NCBI RefSeq assembly: GCF_001563225.1
Contig: NZ_CP014206.1
Location: 3,282,001 to 3,346,000, forward strand
DNA: 64,000 bases
Origin: Pseudodesulfovibrio indicus
GTDB taxonomy: Bacteria > Desulfobacterota > Desulfovibrionia > Desulfovibrionales > Desulfovibrionaceae
Reading direction: 5' to 3'
Position numbers and translations under genes: made by a program. Shown in pieces: positions 50,076 through 57,611 of this stretch (its first letter is position 1; each line of letters begins with the position of its first letter). A model generated the notes under the pieces. The model was given only the letters and a program-made list of their open reading frames with translations. It did no database searches and was not told the origin of the DNA.

Positions 50076-50116
50076 TATGTAATAACCACTCTCATTTTCA
50101 AACGGAGGTGATCCAC

Positions 50117-51256
50117 ATGTACGGCAAGCCGGCAATCCTGACCCTGAGCGGGTTATTGGTGATTTCGCTGGTCCTTGCGCTGACGTTGTTCACCTCGCCA
50201 AAGGAACGGGCAATGGCGGAAAGCGCAAACAATACCACGTACGAGACGGCCACCCTCGCGGGCGGCTGCTTCTGGTGCGTGGAATCGGACATGGAAAAGC
50301 TGCCCGGTGTGATCAAGGTCGTGTCGGGCTATGCGGGCGGGGCCGAAGTGGACCCGAGCTACGAGATGGTCTCGAGCGGAACCACGGGCCACCGCGAGTC
50401 GGTCCAGGTGACCTTCGACCCGTCGCGGATCAGTTACGCCCAGGTCCTTGACCACTACTGGCGGCACTTCGATCCCACGGACGAGGGCGGCTCCTTCGGC
50501 GACCGGGGGTTCCAGTACACCTCGGCCATCTTCTATCACTCCGAAGAGCAGCGGGCGACGGCGCAGGCGTCCAAGAAGGCGCTGGACGAATCCGGCCGCT
50601 TCGACAAGCCGGTAGTCACGCCGATCCTCGCCTTCACCACCTTCTATCCCGCCGAGGGCTACCACCAGGACTACTACAAGCACAATCCGGTGCGCTACAA
50701 GACCTACCGCTACTTCTCCGGCCGCGACCGGTTCGTGGACGACCTTTGGGGCGCGGAGGCGGACGACGTGGTCGAGGCGGCGCAGCACGGCCCGGCCGCG
50801 ACCGCGCCCGCCGGCAACGGCTTCGTCAAGCCGGACGACGAAACGCTGAAGCGGCAGCTCACGCCCCTCCAGTACAAGGTGACCCAGCACGAAGGCACGG
50901 AACCGCCCTTCAACAACGAGTATTGGGACAATCACGCGGAGGGCATCTACGTGGACGTGGTCAGCGGCGAAGTGCTCTTCTCCAGCACGGACAAGTACGA
51001 GTCCGGCACCGGCTGGCCGAGCTTCACCAAGCCCCTGGTGCCGGGGAACATCGTGGAGAAGGAGGACCGCTCCCTCTTCTCGGTCCGCACCGAGGTGCGC
51101 AGCCGCGAGGCGGACTCCCACCTGGGCCACGTCTTTGACGACGGCCCCGCGCCCACCGGGCTGCGCTACTGCATGAACTCGGCCGCCCTGCGGTTCGTAC
51201 CCAAGGCCGACATGCAGGCGGAAGGGTACGGCGAATACCTGTACCTGTTCGAATGA
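50117..51256 (+). CDS. msrAB: Exported methionine sulfoxide reductase MsrA-MsrB fusion
   Basis: 379 residues. An N-terminal membrane/signal segment (5-25) suggests a periplasmic location, where it would repair oxidised methionines in both stereoforms. MsrA domain about 44-225 with GCFWC (catalytic Cys51); MsrB domain about 240-379 with SGTGWPSF and catalytic Cys in [11 protein letters not shown]. The CxxC zinc pairs of many MsrB are absent. GGAGGTGATC precedes the ATG at 50117, which decides the start. Confidence 0.94.
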
Positions 51257-52747: not shown

Positions 52748-53299
52748 CTACGACTGCAAATACTCGTTTTTTATTTTTCTTGCATCTGTAATAAACCAAT
52801 CTAACATTCCCCAACTGTCAATAACTGTAGCATCATTACCCATACTCTTCCTTATTTCAAGCAACAGTGAACCTAAAAGTATCATCAAGTCATACGGCTT
52901 AGCATTTTCGATTTCTGACATATTATAAACATATTGCATTAAATTATTAAAAGCTAGCACTACTCCATCAGAACCAACAAGTGATAGCTTAAAGGAGTAG
53001 CGCCGATATTCAATACTCAACATCCTATCAACAGCTAGTTTATCTTTATCAATATTCTTATTCTTTTTATCACGCTGCCAAGCTTCCTCTGTCATTAGAA
53101 GCATTATAAATGGATCTAATATATCATTATAGACGCTTATTCGGTCATCTCTCATCACTTCATCCATTTTAATCCGCCTTTCAATTGACTGCCGATACTT
53201 CCAACCAACTGCGGATAAAATCAAAACAATAATTGGAGTTGACACTGCGCCTATAGCTGTCACTACACTTAATATAGTCGTTTCTGCGCCAGTACTCAT
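52748..53299 (-). CDS. AT-rich gene for a membrane-anchored protein of unknown function
   Basis: 183 residues. An N-terminal membrane helix (about 12-34, STPIIVLILSAVGW) is followed by a basic stretch (KYRQSIERRIK) and a soluble, mostly helical domain. Codon use is strongly AT-rich, unlike every other gene in the window, which suggests horizontal acquisition. I choose the ATG at 53299 because AGAAGG lies five bases upstream. I recognise no family. No integrase, transposase or flanking direct repeats are seen. Confidence 0.75.
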   Translation of the reverse strand: MSTGAETTILSVVTAIGAVSTPIIVLILSAVGWKYRQSIERRIKMDEVMRDDRISVYNDILDPFIMLLMTEEAWQRDKKNKNIDKDKLAVDRMLSIEYRRYSFKLSLVGSDGVVLAFNNLMQYVYNMSEIENAKPYDLMILLGSLLLEIRKSMGNDATVIDSWGMLDWFITDARKIKNEYLQS

Positions 53300-53370
53300 A
53301 AAGACCTTCTTTGTGTTATTTGTATTTTTATAGAAAAAAATTAATTTTATAGCAACATCAACAAAATGAA

Positions 53371-53396
53371 GAGGGCCGCCCATCCGGGCGGCCCTC
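53371..53396. terminator. Terminator downstream of the cysK-cysS-like gene
   Basis: Perfect stem GAGGGCCGCCC-ATCC-GGGCGGCCCTC. On the minus strand a short T-rich stretch (TTCATTTTG) follows. It separates the fusion gene from the AT-rich gene. Confidence 0.75.
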
Positions 53397-53424: not shown

Positions 53425-55704
53425 CTACGCCCTGAACACCCTCGGGACTCCGGCGGTGTCTTCGACCTTGAAACCGGCGGCGGCGATCTTATCCCTCAAT
53501 TCGTCGGATTGGGCGAAGTCCTTGGCCTCGCGGGCCTTCTGGCGGTCGGCGACCATGCCCTGGACCTCGGGCGGGAGGTCGGAGAGGGGGACGGGCATCT
53601 GGGCGGGGTCGAGGATGCCGAGGATTCCGTCCACGGCCTTCAGTTCATCCAGGCACGCCTTGGCCGCCGCGCCGGTGAGGGTGCCTTCGGCGGCCCAGCC
53701 GTTGACCAGCTTGGTGAACCTGAACAGCGCGGGCCAGAACCGGTGCAGGGCCAGGGAGTCGTCCAGCGCGGTCCTGAAGGCCGCCTTGAGGTCGAAGACC
53801 GCCTGCTCCACGTCGCTCGGCACGCGCTCGCCGCGCTCGTCCAGGGCCAGGGTCAGGGCCACCGCGCCCTCCTGGATGCGCCGCCAGTTGCGCGCCCACA
53901 TGGCCAGGTTGTCCGCCGAGCCGCAGAGGGGCTTGCGGGCGGCCACGGAGAGCAGCCAGAGCCGCGCCGCGCGGAACCCGCCGAGCTTTTCGGCCACAAT
54001 GGACAAATCCTCGCCCTCGCAGTCCGAGGTCTGCTGGCAGACCAGCCACGCCTGGACCTCGCGCCCGGCCGTGGACCAGATGGCCCGCAGGTTCTCCAGG
54101 TGCGGGAAGCGGTGCTTGTCCGAGCCGATCATGACGTCCGTGCGCGGCTGCGCGTCCATGGCCGTGGCCGCGTGCTGCAAAAACCAGCTCGGGCGCACGT
54201 TGCCCCACTGGGTCTCCAGCACCTCGCCGCGCTTGAGGTCCAGGAGCGTGGCCCGCTTCAGCAGCGTGAAATCGAGGGGATTGTCCTTGACGTAGGCGTT
54301 CAGGTCCACGGTCCGGCCCCCGGACACCTTGTCCATGTCCACGGTGCCGATCTCGCCGTACCGCTTGTCGCGGAACACGTCGAAATAGACCGAGCGGAGC
54401 TTCTCGTAGGCCAGCCCCTTGCCCATGAGCTTGCGGCACAGGGAGAGCGCGGTGTCGTCGCTGTCCGTGGACAGGGGAAATTCGAGGGAGTCGGCCAGCC
54501 CCATGGCCCGCGCGCGCTCCATAATCGTTTCGCGGCGGCTCCGGGCAAAGGATTCGCGGGAACCGTCCAGGTCGCGGGCCGCGGCCAGGGTGCGGTCGTC
54601 CATGTCGGACAGCCCGGCCACGCCGGAGACCTCCACGCCGCGCGAGGCCAGGTGGCGGACCAGGACGTCGAGCAGCACCAGCCTGCGCCAGGAGTCCAGG
54701 CCGTCCGGGTTGTCCAGGCTCGGCCCCATGGTGTAGACGCCGAGCCCCGCGCCCGCGCTGAGCATCTTGTCCGCGTTCGAGGCCATGTCGAAGACCGTCA
54801 CCCCGCTGCCCGCCTGCTGGCGGTAGAGGTGGGTCGAAAGATAGCGTTCGCCGGAATCCGGGAAGATGACCACCACCAGGCCGCTGTCCAGCCGTCCGGC
54901 CAGTTGCAGCGCCCCGGCCATGGCCGCGCCGGAGCTCATGCCCGCGAAGATGCCCTCTTCGCGCGCCAACCGGCGGCAGGTCTCGAAGGCGACCTCGTCC
55001 TCCACGTGCAGGACCTCGTCCAGGGCGTTCTTGTCGTAGATGCCCGGCGGGTAGGATTCGAGCATGTTCTTGAGGCCCTGAATCCTGTGGCCCGCGTAGG
55101 GCTCCACGGCGGCCACGTGGACCGAGCCCATCTCGTGCAGCCTTTTCGCGATGCCCATGGCCGTACCCGAGGTGCCGAGCGTCATGACGCAGTGGGTCAC
55201 CGCGCCCCCGGTCTGGTTCCAGATCTCGAGCCCGGTGCCCATGTAGTGCGCCTGGACCGAGGCCGGATTGTTGTACTGGTCCATGAGCACATACTTGTCC
55301 GGTTCCTCGCGGGCGTAGCGGTACGCCTGCTCGATGGCCCCGTCCGTGGCCAGGTGGCCGGGGGTCAGCTCCAGCTCCGCGCCGTAGGCGGCCATGATCA
55401 TCTTGCGCTCCTCGCTGGCCGTCTCCGGCATGAGCAGCTTGATGCGGTACCCCTTGATGGCCGCGACCATGGCCAGCCCCACGCCGGTGTTGCCGGAGGT
55501 GGCCTCGATGATGACCTTGTCCCTGGTCAGCTCGCCCGATTTCTCCGCCGCCGCGATCATGGCCGCGGCCACCCGGTCCTTGATGGAGCCGCCGGGGTTC
55601 TGGCACTCGATCTTGGCCAAAATCCTGACGTCGGGATTGGGATTCAGATGGCGAATTTCCACCAGCGGCGTGTTGCCGATCAGTTCAAGCAGGTCTTTAT
55701 TCAT
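53425..55704 (-). CDS. Cysteine synthase fused to a degenerate cysteinyl-tRNA-synthetase-like module
   Basis: 759 residues. Residues 1 to about 300 are a complete PLP-dependent CysK: Lys42 in GGSIKDR, SGNTG (70-74), and GTSGTAMG. From about 305 the sequence follows cysteinyl-tRNA synthetase (YTMGPSLDNP, SWFLQHAATAM, FPHLENLRAIWS, and a C-terminal helical domain with ADRQKAREAKDFAQSDELRDKI). The zinc/HIGH region (normally CGPTVYDxxHIGH) has become MGPSLDNPDGLDSW and no KMSKS is present. The second module therefore probably cannot aminoacylate tRNA. The CysK half should make cysteine from O-acetylserine and sulfide. Confidence 0.85.
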   Translation of the reverse strand: MNKDLLELIGNTPLVEIRHLNPNPDVRILAKIECQNPGGSIKDRVAAAMIAAAEKSGELTRDKVIIEATSGNTGVGLAMVAAIKGYRIKLLMPETASEERKMIMAAYGAELELTPGHLATDGAIEQAYRYAREEPDKYVLMDQYNNPASVQAHYMGTGLEIWNQTGGAVTHCVMTLGTSGTAMGIAKRLHEMGSVHVAAVEPYAGHRIQGLKNMLESYPPGIYDKNALDEVLHVEDEVAFETCRRLAREEGIFAGMSSGAAMAGALQLAGRLDSGLVVVIFPDSGERYLSTHLYRQQAGSGVTVFDMASNADKMLSAGAGLGVYTMGPSLDNPDGLDSWRRLVLLDVLVRHLASRGVEVSGVAGLSDMDDRTLAAARDLDGSRESFARSRRETIMERARAMGLADSLEFPLSTDSDDTALSLCRKLMGKGLAYEKLRSVYFDVFRDKRYGEIGTVDMDKVSGGRTVDLNAYVKDNPLDFTLLKRATLLDLKRGEVLETQWGNVRPSWFLQHAATAMDAQPRTDVMIGSDKHRFPHLENLRAIWSTAGREVQAWLVCQQTSDCEGEDLSIVAEKLGGFRAARLWLLSVAARKPLCGSADNLAMWARNWRRIQEGAVALTLALDERGERVPSDVEQAVFDLKAAFRTALDDSLALHRFWPALFRFTKLVNGWAAEGTLTGAAAKACLDELKAVDGILGILDPAQMPVPLSDLPPEVQGMVADRQKAREAKDFAQSDELRDKIAAAGFKVEDTAGVPRVFRA

Positions 55705-55841: not shown

Positions 55842-57611
55842 ATGAACCCGTTTCCGTTCCTGAAAGACAACATCGAATACCTGAGCCGCACCGGAAATCC
55901 CATCTTCCAGTGGCTCTCCACCCGCCCGTTCAACGAGGACAAGCTCATGGGACGGCTGTTCGTCAACGAGTTCGGGCTGCACGACTGGCGCATGGACGAC
56001 GGCAAGGGCATGTTCGAGTCCCTGCCGCCCGAGGGGCTCTACGGCAACTGGCTGCACCCGGAAAAGGCCGGGACCTCGGCCACCTTCGTGGTCGGCGCCA
56101 ACCTCGGCTACGGGATCAACCACCTGCTGACCAACACCCCGGACACCCACAAGGTCATGCTCCTGGAGCCGCGCTCCGAGATGCTCCTGGCCTGCCTCAG
56201 CCAGACCGACTACCGGCCGTTCCTGGAACGCAAGAAATTTCACCTCCTGGTCCCGGACGAGCGGTTCCTGTCCGAGGTGGTCCGCAACCTGGACCTCCAG
56301 TTCGTGTACGGCCAGATCCACCTCAAGGGGGACCTGCCCAGCCGCCAGCTGGGGCCGGAATACGCCCGGTGGACCACCTGGCTCAAGAACAAGCTGGAGA
56401 ACTTCTCCCTGGAGCTGTCCACCCTGCGCCACCGCCAGGACGTCATGGTCAGGAACGAGCTGGACAACTTCTCCAAGGCCATGCGCGACGGCAGCCTGAA
56501 ACCCATGGAGGGAAGGGGCGCGGGCGTGGGCGCGGTCATCCTCGGCGCTGGTCCGTCCCTGGAGCACATGGCCCCGCTGCTCAAGGAGAAGACCGGCCAC
56601 GTCCTCTACACCTGCGCGCTCCAGACCGTCCCCTCGCTCCAGAGGCTCGGCATCAAGCCCCACCTCTGCGCGGCCATCGACTACGACAAGTCCATGCTCA
56701 AGGTCTTCGAGCGGCTGGACCCGGATTTCGTCCAGGACGTGCCCCTGGTCTACTCCACCAAGATCGATCCCATGATCCTCAAGCGCTATCCCGGACCGAC
56801 CCTGCCCCTGTGGACCGTGGGCGGCATGGGCACCTACGTGCTCAAGGACCGCGACCTGGTCATCGACGCGGGCGGCAACGTCTCGGTCACCCTGTCCCGC
56901 TTCCTGCGCCACTGCGGAGTGAGCCACCTGCTCCTGGCGGGCCAGGACTACGCCTGGATCAACGGCAAGTCCCACTCCGGCGGCCACCACAACCACACCA
57001 CCGAGATAGTGCGGCGCTCCTACCACCAGACCACGAAAAACCGCGACGGCGAGGAGATCCTGACCACCGTCCAGTACATGACCGCCAAGCGCGAGCTGGA
57101 GGAGGACCTCAAGCAGTCGTCCTTCCCGGTGTTCAACCTCTACGGCGGCGGCGCGGTCATCGAAGGCACGAAGAACGTGGAGGTGGACCAGGCCTACCGC
57201 GAAGGCATCCTGGCCTCGGCCCCCGGCGCGGTGGAACGGTTCCTGTCCGACCTCGCGCGCTGCCGCAACAACGCCGCGCCCCTGCGCCTTGAGCCGCGCT
57301 CTCCCATGTGGAGCACCTCCATGCGCAACGCGGAAAAACACCTGGCCAAGCTCTTCAAGAACCTGGGCACCAACCAGCAGGCGGTCCACGAGACCCTGAA
57401 CCGCGTGGAGCTGTTCGTGAAGCAGGACCCGCTCTACTCGCCCTACCTGTTCAACGAGATCGTGGACCTGGCCGGGCTGACCAAGGCCAAGTCGGCCTAT
57501 GAACCCAAGGATTTGCCGGAATTCAAGCGGATCGCCAAGGGCATGCTCAGGAAGGTCCGGGAGATCGACCGCAAGGTCTGCCTGGACTGCGCCGAGCAGG
57601 CCGTGGCCTGA
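55842..57611 (+). CDS. MptE-like (DUF115) motility accessory protein
   Basis: 589-residue cytosolic protein. The central part (about 220-440) is the DUF115/6-hydroxymethylpterin-pyrophosphokinase-like fold, with ILGAGPSLEHM, CALQTVPSLQRLGIKPHLCAAIDYDK and LLAGQDYAWINGKSH. Bacterial relatives are motility-associated factors (Maf) linked to flagellin glycosylation with nonulosonic acids. The N-terminal 200 residues include a VVGANLGYGINHLL segment common in bacterial Maf proteins. No flagellar gene is adjacent, but the sigma-54 promoter fits motility control. Confidence 0.82.
   Translation: MNPFPFLKDNIEYLSRTGNPIFQWLSTRPFNEDKLMGRLFVNEFGLHDWRMDDGKGMFESLPPEGLYGNWLHPEKAGTSATFVVGANLGYGINHLLTNTPDTHKVMLLEPRSEMLLACLSQTDYRPFLERKKFHLLVPDERFLSEVVRNLDLQFVYGQIHLKGDLPSRQLGPEYARWTTWLKNKLENFSLELSTLRHRQDVMVRNELDNFSKAMRDGSLKPMEGRGAGVGAVILGAGPSLEHMAPLLKEKTGHVLYTCALQTVPSLQRLGIKPHLCAAIDYDKSMLKVFERLDPDFVQDVPLVYSTKIDPMILKRYPGPTLPLWTVGGMGTYVLKDRDLVIDAGGNVSVTLSRFLRHCGVSHLLLAGQDYAWINGKSHSGGHHNHTTEIVRRSYHQTTKNRDGEEILTTVQYMTAKRELEEDLKQSSFPVFNLYGGGAVIEGTKNVEVDQAYREGILASAPGAVERFLSDLARCRNNAAPLRLEPRSPMWSTSMRNAEKHLAKLFKNLGTNQQAVHETLNRVELFVKQDPLYSPYLFNEIVDLAGLTKAKSAYEPKDLPEFKRIAKGMLRKVREIDRKVCLDCAEQAVA

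What the first reader, a model, noticed from the sequence alone, without database searches (positions are those of the whole stretch)
53425..55704. Cysteine synthase fused to a cysteinyl-tRNA-synthetase-like module that has lost its catalytic motifs
Seen: one 759-residue frame with an intact CysK (Lys42, SGNTG, GTSGT) followed by sequence collinear with CysRS, in which the zinc/HIGH region reads MGPSLDNPDGLDSW and KMSKS is missing. Known: free-standing CysK and CysRS are separate enzymes, and CysRS needs HIGH, KMSKS and a zinc cysteine. Inference: the module may bind tRNA or cysteine as a sensor, channel cysteine, or regulate CysK, rather than charge tRNA.
Basis: partly seen in the sequence, partly recalled or inferred. 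Interest (0 to 1): 0.75.

Follow-up and report, generated by a model that had tools for sequence, protein, structure and literature searches.

The report
Cysteine synthase fused to dead tRNA-synthetase
A cysteine-making enzyme in many relatives of Desulfovibrio carries a worn-out copy of the enzyme that loads cysteine onto its transfer RNA; the copy has lost the loading machinery but kept the residues that read that RNA, so it may tie cysteine production to the state of the RNA, which is not yet tested.

Summary
The gene is on the minus strand (53425-55704, 759 aa): residues 1-300 are a CysM-type cysteine synthase with its catalytic residues, and 316-752 match cysteinyl-tRNA synthetase (CysRS) over its length. 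It is not a one-off: fusion-type matches occur in 149 of 297 genomes of the class and 115 of 297 of the phylum (three plain CysRS removed). The host also has a normal CysRS, a normal CysK, a CysE-like gene and one tRNA-Cys. Across 131 non-redundant fusions a strict KMSKS is kept in 0, a HIGH-like motif in 5 and the full zinc set in 39, not in this protein. The residues that read G34 of the tRNA-Cys anticodon are kept almost throughout, and the CP-like region is as conserved as the synthase, with its own invariants. Best reading: a charging-dead pseudo-synthetase that still binds tRNA-Cys and couples its state to a second cysteine synthase, in the manner of HisZ or GCN2. tRNA binding is inferred from conservation; coupling is untested. 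The open papers searched do not describe the fusion.

The parts
53425..55704 (-). Whole gene: CysM-type cysteine synthase fused to a CysRS-like module, 759 aa
   Evidence: single open frame; 172 full-length relatives aligned
54805..55704 (-). Residues 1-300: CysM-type PLP enzyme; Lys42 and Lys212 in 131 of 131 fusions
53449..54753 (-). Residues 318-752: CysRS-like module
54682..54702 (-). Residues 335-341: place of the HIGH motif, here GLDSWRR; R340 in 131 of 131 and R341 in 130 of 131 fusions
54727..54729 (-). Met326 in place of the first zinc Cys
54172..54174 (-). His511 in place of the second zinc Cys
54088..54102 (-). Residues 535-539 (HLENL): His kept, zinc-binding Glu replaced by Leu539
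53995..54039 (-). Residues 556-570: place of the KMSKS loop, which is deleted here
54184..54414 (-). Residues 431-507: CP-like region, the most conserved part of the module, with fusion-specific conserved residues (S438, T465, Y471, R484, L487, L490, K491, G493, T498) and the only stretch of pLDDT below 50 (460-466)
53428..53589 (-). Residues 706-759: CysS_C anticodon-binding domain with R721, R725, F730, D734, R737, D749 (aligned to E. coli R423, R427, W432, D436, R439, D451)

Best explanation
The protein is a second, CysM-type cysteine synthase whose C-terminal module is a charging-dead CysRS paralogue that still binds tRNA-Cys. Shown from sequence: the synthase residues are intact; the module is collinear with CysRS and keeps the anticodon-reading residues; charging motifs are lost across most of the family; a normal CysRS is in the genome. 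Predicted: the CysRS fold of residues 301-705. Inferred: the module docks tRNA-Cys by its GCA anticodon, most usefully the uncharged form that builds up when cysteine is short, and through its conserved CP-like region changes the activity of the attached synthase, so that tRNA-Cys state is coupled to cysteine synthesis at the protein level.
For: G34 of tRNA-Cys is contacted in E. coli CysRS by R427, D436, W432 and R423 (PMC12684709, passage read). The aligned residues (gap-free) are R721 in 131 of 131; 725 R in 124, K in 5, Q in 2; 730 F/W/Y in 131; D734 in 131. R737 is kept in 131 and D749 in 130, the missing row being L138, which ends at its contig end. The same holds over all 172 rows. Mean retention of canonical-invariant columns is 0.85 in the anticodon domain (8 columns) against 0.46, 0.59, 0.43 and 0.46 in the other parts. 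Sampling among 140 canonical-invariant columns, the three published-contact columns 721, 725 and 734 rank that high with p 0.010; with R737 and D749, which I chose after seeing them conserved, p 4e-4. Catalytic loss: strict KMSKS 0 of 131 against 23 of 23 canonical; HIGH-like 5 of 131; full zinc set 39 of 131. CysRS* of Desulfobacterales, an active CysRS relative with another tRNA, lacks an anticodon domain (PMC9437257, passage read). The CP-like region has mean entropy 1.17 bits, near the synthase at 1.13, against 2.08-2.46 in the rest of the module, and 18 positions are conserved at 90% or more in fusions with a residue other than the canonical majority. One tRNA-Cys among 49 tRNA matches; canonical CysRS, CysK and CysE-like gene in the host.
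Against: No binding, RNA complex or activity data exist. The kept charged residues may partly hold the small helical domain together. The anticodon domain as a whole is variable (entropy 2.19), and two of its 8 canonical-invariant columns are poorly kept (L740 0.67, W756 0.25). The CP-like region keeps more canonical-invariant columns in number (16 of 36 at 95% or more, against 5 of 8 in the anticodon domain), so retention is not unique to tRNA reading. The MshC control is weak: MshC chains match only residues 6-326 of the host CysRS, but so does 3sp1, a solved CysRS of 501 aa, up to 327. The structural match stops at residue 705, so the anticodon domain rests on sequence. No tRNA-Cys gene lies near the fusion in 53 loci and no Rfam element in the window. 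About half the class lacks the gene. Ten of 131 fusions keep a KMSRS-like loop, seven of these with the full zinc set, so cysteine or ATP binding may matter in some members.
Confidence: 0.45

Rival explanations
1. HisZ-like protein regulator without tRNA: the module is an allosteric or gating part of the synthase, answering to cysteine, O-acetylserine or another small ligand, or placing its conserved CP-like loop at the synthase active site as the CysE tail does in CysK (recalled).
For: CP-like region about as conserved as the synthase, with fusion-specific conserved residues and a low-confidence loop at 460-466. HisZ, a HisRS paralogue without adenylation, mediates feedback on HisG (PMC9437257, passage read). 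In 26 genomes without the fusion, no synthase scores above 315.4 bits with this synthase domain, against 367-473 in six carriers, so synthase and module seem to travel together.
Against: Does not by itself explain the kept G34-contact residues. The canonical cysteine pocket has lost its zinc ligands in this protein.
Confidence: 0.25
2. Tether or channel: the module holds tRNA-Cys or the canonical CysRS close to the synthase so that new cysteine is passed on to charging.
For: Permanent fusion of synthesis and a probable tRNA-Cys reader; canonical CysRS alongside in the host and in most of the 60 genomes.
Against: No evidence of contact with canonical CysRS; not testable here.
Confidence: 0.13
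3. The module is still an enzyme, either charging tRNA or joining cysteine to another acceptor as MshC does.
For: Ten of 131 fusions keep a KMSRS-like loop, seven of them with the full zinc set.
Against: HIGH-like in only 5 of 131, strict KMSKS in 0 of 131; the window protein has none of HIGH, KMSKS or the zinc cysteines.
Confidence: 0.07
4. Vestige: a dying domain kept only because it is fused.
For: Rossmann and helical parts are variable (entropy 2.08-2.46).
Against: Of 176 fusion loci fetched, 172 are full length, 2 have a broken frame (L009, L089) and 2 are cut by contig ends (L141, L167); the family spans a phylum and has its own conserved residues. The loci were picked by match to the module, so early truncations would be under-sampled.
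Confidence: 0.05

Closest known systems
Cysteinyl-tRNA synthetase (CysRS, TIGR00435)
   Different: No HIGH, KMSKS or zinc set in this protein; 110.9 bits against cut-off 340; fused to a synthase; separate branch in the tree
CysM / O-acetylserine sulfhydrylase B (TIGR01138, PDB 2bhs, 2v03)
   Different: 350.3 bits against the equivalog cut-off 394.2; carries the module of about 450 residues
HisZ with HisG
   Same: Works-like: non-charging synthetase paralogue attached to an enzyme that makes the same amino acid (PMC9437257, passage read)
   Different: HisRS-derived, a separate subunit, answers to histidine; tRNA reading not involved as far as recalled
GCN2 (HisRS-like domain on a kinase)
   Same: Works-like: synthetase-like domain that binds uncharged tRNA (recalled, no call)
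   Different: Eukaryotic kinase; here the effector would be the biosynthetic enzyme itself
MshC and CysRS*
   Same: CysRS paralogues outside ordinary translation (PMC9437257, passage read)
   Different: Active enzymes; CysRS* lacks the anticodon domain, and MshC chains of 413-414 aa match only the front of the host CysRS (a weak sign, see evidence against)

Membership tests
CysRS (functional cysteine-tRNA ligase) | HIGH motif | tested here: not met
   GLDS at 335-338; HIGH-like in 5 of 131 fusions
CysRS (functional cysteine-tRNA ligase) | KMSKS motif | tested here: not met
   Deleted here; strict pattern 0 of 131 fusions, 23 of 23 canonical; relaxed pattern 11 of 131, one of them spurious
CysRS (functional cysteine-tRNA ligase) | Zinc ligands Cys, Cys, His, Glu | tested here: not met
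   M, H, H, L here; complete in 39 of 131 fusions
CysRS (functional cysteine-tRNA ligase) | Anticodon-binding domain with G34-contacting residues | tested here: met
   CysS_C 31.3 bits over cut-off 23; residues kept
CysRS (functional cysteine-tRNA ligase) | Charges tRNA-Cys | not testable with these tools
   Needs an assay; a canonical CysRS is in the genome
Cysteine synthase (CysK/CysM, TIGR01136) | Profile score over cut-off | tested here: met
   353.9 against 344.15
Cysteine synthase (CysK/CysM, TIGR01136) | PLP lysine and SGNTG, GT.GT loops (recalled as defining) | tested here: met
   Lys42, 70-74, 177-181; Lys42 in 131 of 131
Cysteine synthase B (CysM equivalog TIGR01138) | Equivalog cut-off | tested here: not met
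   350.3 against 394.2; resembles CysM by loop and pocket residue
MshC | CysRS-like ligase with working catalytic motifs and no anticodon domain (recalled) | tested here: not met
   Catalytic motifs absent, CysS_C present
HisZ/GCN2-like synthetase-derived regulators | Ligand or tRNA binding that alters an attached enzyme | not testable with these tools
   Works-like analogy only

The most novel reading that the evidence does not exclude
A biosynthetic enzyme gated directly by its cognate tRNA: the pseudo-CysRS reads uncharged tRNA-Cys and switches the fused cysteine synthase, a protein-level counterpart of tRNA-sensing attenuation and T-boxes, kept across much of a bacterial phylum. A bolder form, that the synthase makes or modifies cysteine on a tRNA-bound substrate, is not excluded but has no positive evidence.
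Probability: 0.33. Interest if true: 0.85.

Novelty: new variant of a known kind. Interest (0 to 1): 0.62.

Why it matters
If true, it would be a direct protein-level link between the charging state of a tRNA and the enzyme that makes that amino acid. The family also gives a natural series, from members with a zinc site and a KMSRS-like loop to members with neither, of a synthetase losing catalysis while keeping anticodon residues. Even if the tRNA link fails, a broad family with a charging-dead synthetase domain on a cysteine synthase is a clear and cheap biochemical target. Public annotation probably calls these proteins plain cysteine synthase; that was not checked.

Tried and rejected
Considered and rejected: (1) The only CysRS of the genome: a canonical CysRS (open frame 490 aa) scores 462.8 bits. 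(2) Assembly artefact: the same fusion in 172 aligned rows. (3) Conserved partner genes: of 106 loci examined, 14 (the window slice among them) could not be parsed by my gene picker and are not counted; in the other 92 no neighbour is general, the commonest being an unknown family directly downstream in 19 loci, one member of which has no Pfam match. (4) tRNA-Cys gene beside the fusion: none in 53 loci. (5) RNA element in the window: no Rfam match at gathering score. (6) Cysteine persulfide synthesis by CysRS lysines (recalled idea): the lysines of KIIK and KMSKS are not kept in the window protein; not pursued. (7) Phosphoserine as substrate because of invariant K212: a lead only; the paper search for it found nothing. 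(8) Archaeal occurrence: one of the 80 named loci kept is titled Methanococcoides (L169), perhaps misbinned; not resolved (one search failed). One search kept 80 of 517 relatives, so distribution outside the phylum is untested.

The fold searches show 50 rows each, nearly all synthase; one CysRS row, 8qhp_A, appears.

The MshC control turned out weak. I lowered the best explanation from 0.5 to 0.45 and the novel case from 0.35 to 0.33, and raised the tRNA-free rival from 0.22 to 0.25 and the still-an-enzyme rival from 0.06 to 0.07.

Papers: search listings (searches found none); passages read in PMC2922099, PMC12684709, PMC9976931, PMC9437257, PMC5424206, PMC8762117 and PMC3431258. No whole paper was read. 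Hauenstein 2004 is known only through PMC12684709. GCN2, the CysE tail, CysM not pairing with CysE, MshC motifs and the name connective peptide are recalled.

Full report

The host. The genome is one contig of 3.97 Mb. It has a canonical CysRS (462.8 bits), a free-standing CysK (TIGR01139 450.9 bits) with a CysE-like gene close by (170.1 bits, below that model's cut-off of 210.65, which 6 of the 14 control genomes also miss), and one tRNA-Cys with anticodon GCA among 49 tRNA matches. The named relatives of highest identity are Pseudodesulfovibrio, so the host is probably of that genus.

How widespread. With the module as query, fusion-type matches occur in 55 of the 60 genomes, the host included (without: G030, G042, G043, G054, G056; two of these are under 86% complete, and G056 has a weak partial match), in 149 of 297 genomes of the class (36 of 53 genera) and in 118 of 297 of the phylum (81 of 199 genera). 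Three of the 118 are plain CysRS on inspection (L090, L091, L092), leaving 115 genomes and 79 genera. Those 115 have open frames of 704 aa or more. Of 46 loci fetched from genomes marked 'same phylum', 43 carry the synthase in the same frame, one of them (L089) with the frame broken inside the module, and 3 are the plain CysRS. No stand-alone module was seen at that threshold. Conversely, in 26 of the genomes without the fusion the best match to the fusion's synthase domain is at most 315.4 bits, in open frames of 263-403 aa (one of 560; one genome without a match), while six carriers score 367-473. So synthase and module seem to come and go together. In a tree of 46 diverse fusions and 23 canonical CysRS the fusions lie on one side of a fully supported branch (SH-aLRT 100, quick method, unrooted).

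What was lost and what was kept. I aligned 172 fusions and 24 canonical CysRS, reduced to 131 and 23 at 85% identity. Full-length rows only were kept: of 176 fusion loci, 2 with broken frames and 2 cut by contig ends were dropped. KMSKS by a strict pattern: 0 of 131 against 23 of 23; by a relaxed pattern 11, one spurious, of the other ten 7 have the full zinc set. HIGH-like: 5 of 131. Full zinc set: 39 of 131; the window protein has neither zinc cysteine. The zinc set changes at least 6 times on the tree of 46 fusions. Against this, the residues that in E. coli CysRS contact G34 (R423, R427, W432, D436; PMC12684709, passage read) align without gaps to R721, R725, F730 and D734, which are R in 131, R/K/Q in 124/5/2, aromatic in 131 and D in 131 of 131; R737 is kept in 131 and D749 in 130, the last row ending at its contig end.

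How strong that is. Of canonical-invariant columns, mean retention is 0.85 in the anticodon domain (8 columns, two of them poorly kept) and 0.46, 0.59, 0.43 and 0.46 in the other four parts. The three published-contact columns rank as high by chance with p 0.010; adding R737 and D749, chosen after seeing them conserved, gives 4e-4. The CP-like region keeps more columns in absolute number (16 of 36 at 95% or more). The canonical rows come from the same phylum only.

New selection. Residues 431-507, corresponding to the connective peptide (name recalled), have mean entropy 1.17 bits, near the synthase domain (1.13), while the rest of the module lies at 2.08-2.46. Eighteen positions of the module are conserved at 90% or more in fusions with a residue that is not the canonical majority, among them R341, S438, T465, Y471, R484, L487, L490, K491, G493 and T498. 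Residues 460-466 in this stretch are the only segment with pLDDT below 50, which would fit a loop ordered only with a partner. That is inference.

Mechanism. A module that has shed ATP and cysteine chemistry but kept anticodon reading is best explained by tRNA-Cys binding. CysRS*, an active relative with a different tRNA, lacks the anticodon domain (PMC9437257, passage read), so the domain can be lost when it is not used. MshC chains match only residues 6-326 of the host CysRS, but a true CysRS, 3sp1, does the same there, so that control is weak. Joined to a cysteine synthase, the natural use is to sense uncharged tRNA-Cys and adjust synthesis. HisZ, a HisRS paralogue that regulates HisG (PMC9437257, passage read), and GCN2 (recalled) are precedents for a synthetase-derived regulator. 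Shown: presence, conservation, motif loss and retention. Inferred: tRNA binding. Speculative: gating. A tRNA-free allosteric role is the strongest rival.

Synthase type. The N-terminal domain lacks the insert that the CysK-type relative 5xa2 has just before HKIQG, as E. coli CysM does, and has Lys212 where E. coli CysM has arginine, invariant in 131 of 131. CysM does not pair with CysE (recalled), so the module might take CysE's regulatory place for this second synthase. Its substrates are open.

Novelty. Searches of the open library aimed at the fusion and at neighbouring topics gave no description of it in listings or in the passages read. PMC5424206 and PMC8762117 treat RNA-dependent cysteine systems, PMC9437257 reviews synthetase paralogues, PMC2922099 predicts synthetase-like peptide makers (passages). 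Subscription papers are not held. I rate it a new variant of a known kind: a synthetase-derived, probably regulatory module on a new enzyme, with a new pattern of loss and retention.

Noticed in passing
window 50108-51256 (+): MsrA-MsrB methionine sulfoxide reductase fusion (PMSR and SelR domains).
   Followed up: no
window 55842-57611 (+): MptE-like protein with a borderline Maf N-terminal match, transcribed divergently from the fusion gene. A protein family found next to the fusion on the opposite strand in 7 loci is its relative (42% identity to the L110 member over 191 residues).
   Followed up: partly
Loci such as L172, L178, L182, L184, downstream of the fusion: An unknown family of about 330 aa lies directly downstream on the same strand in 19 of 92 parsed loci; the L172 member has no Pfam match.
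   Followed up: partly
window 52748-53383 (-): 211-aa protein downstream of the fusion with no Pfam match.
   Followed up: no
G028 (L009 and contig C2): One relative carries two copies of the fusion; in one of them synthase and module lie in different frames.
   Followed up: no
L169: A contig titled Methanococcoides carries the fusion; perhaps a misbinned bacterial contig.
   Followed up: no
L093, L094, L082, L084: Members that keep the zinc set and a KMSRS-like loop but have lost the second His of HIGH: possible intermediate stages of catalytic decay.
   Followed up: partly
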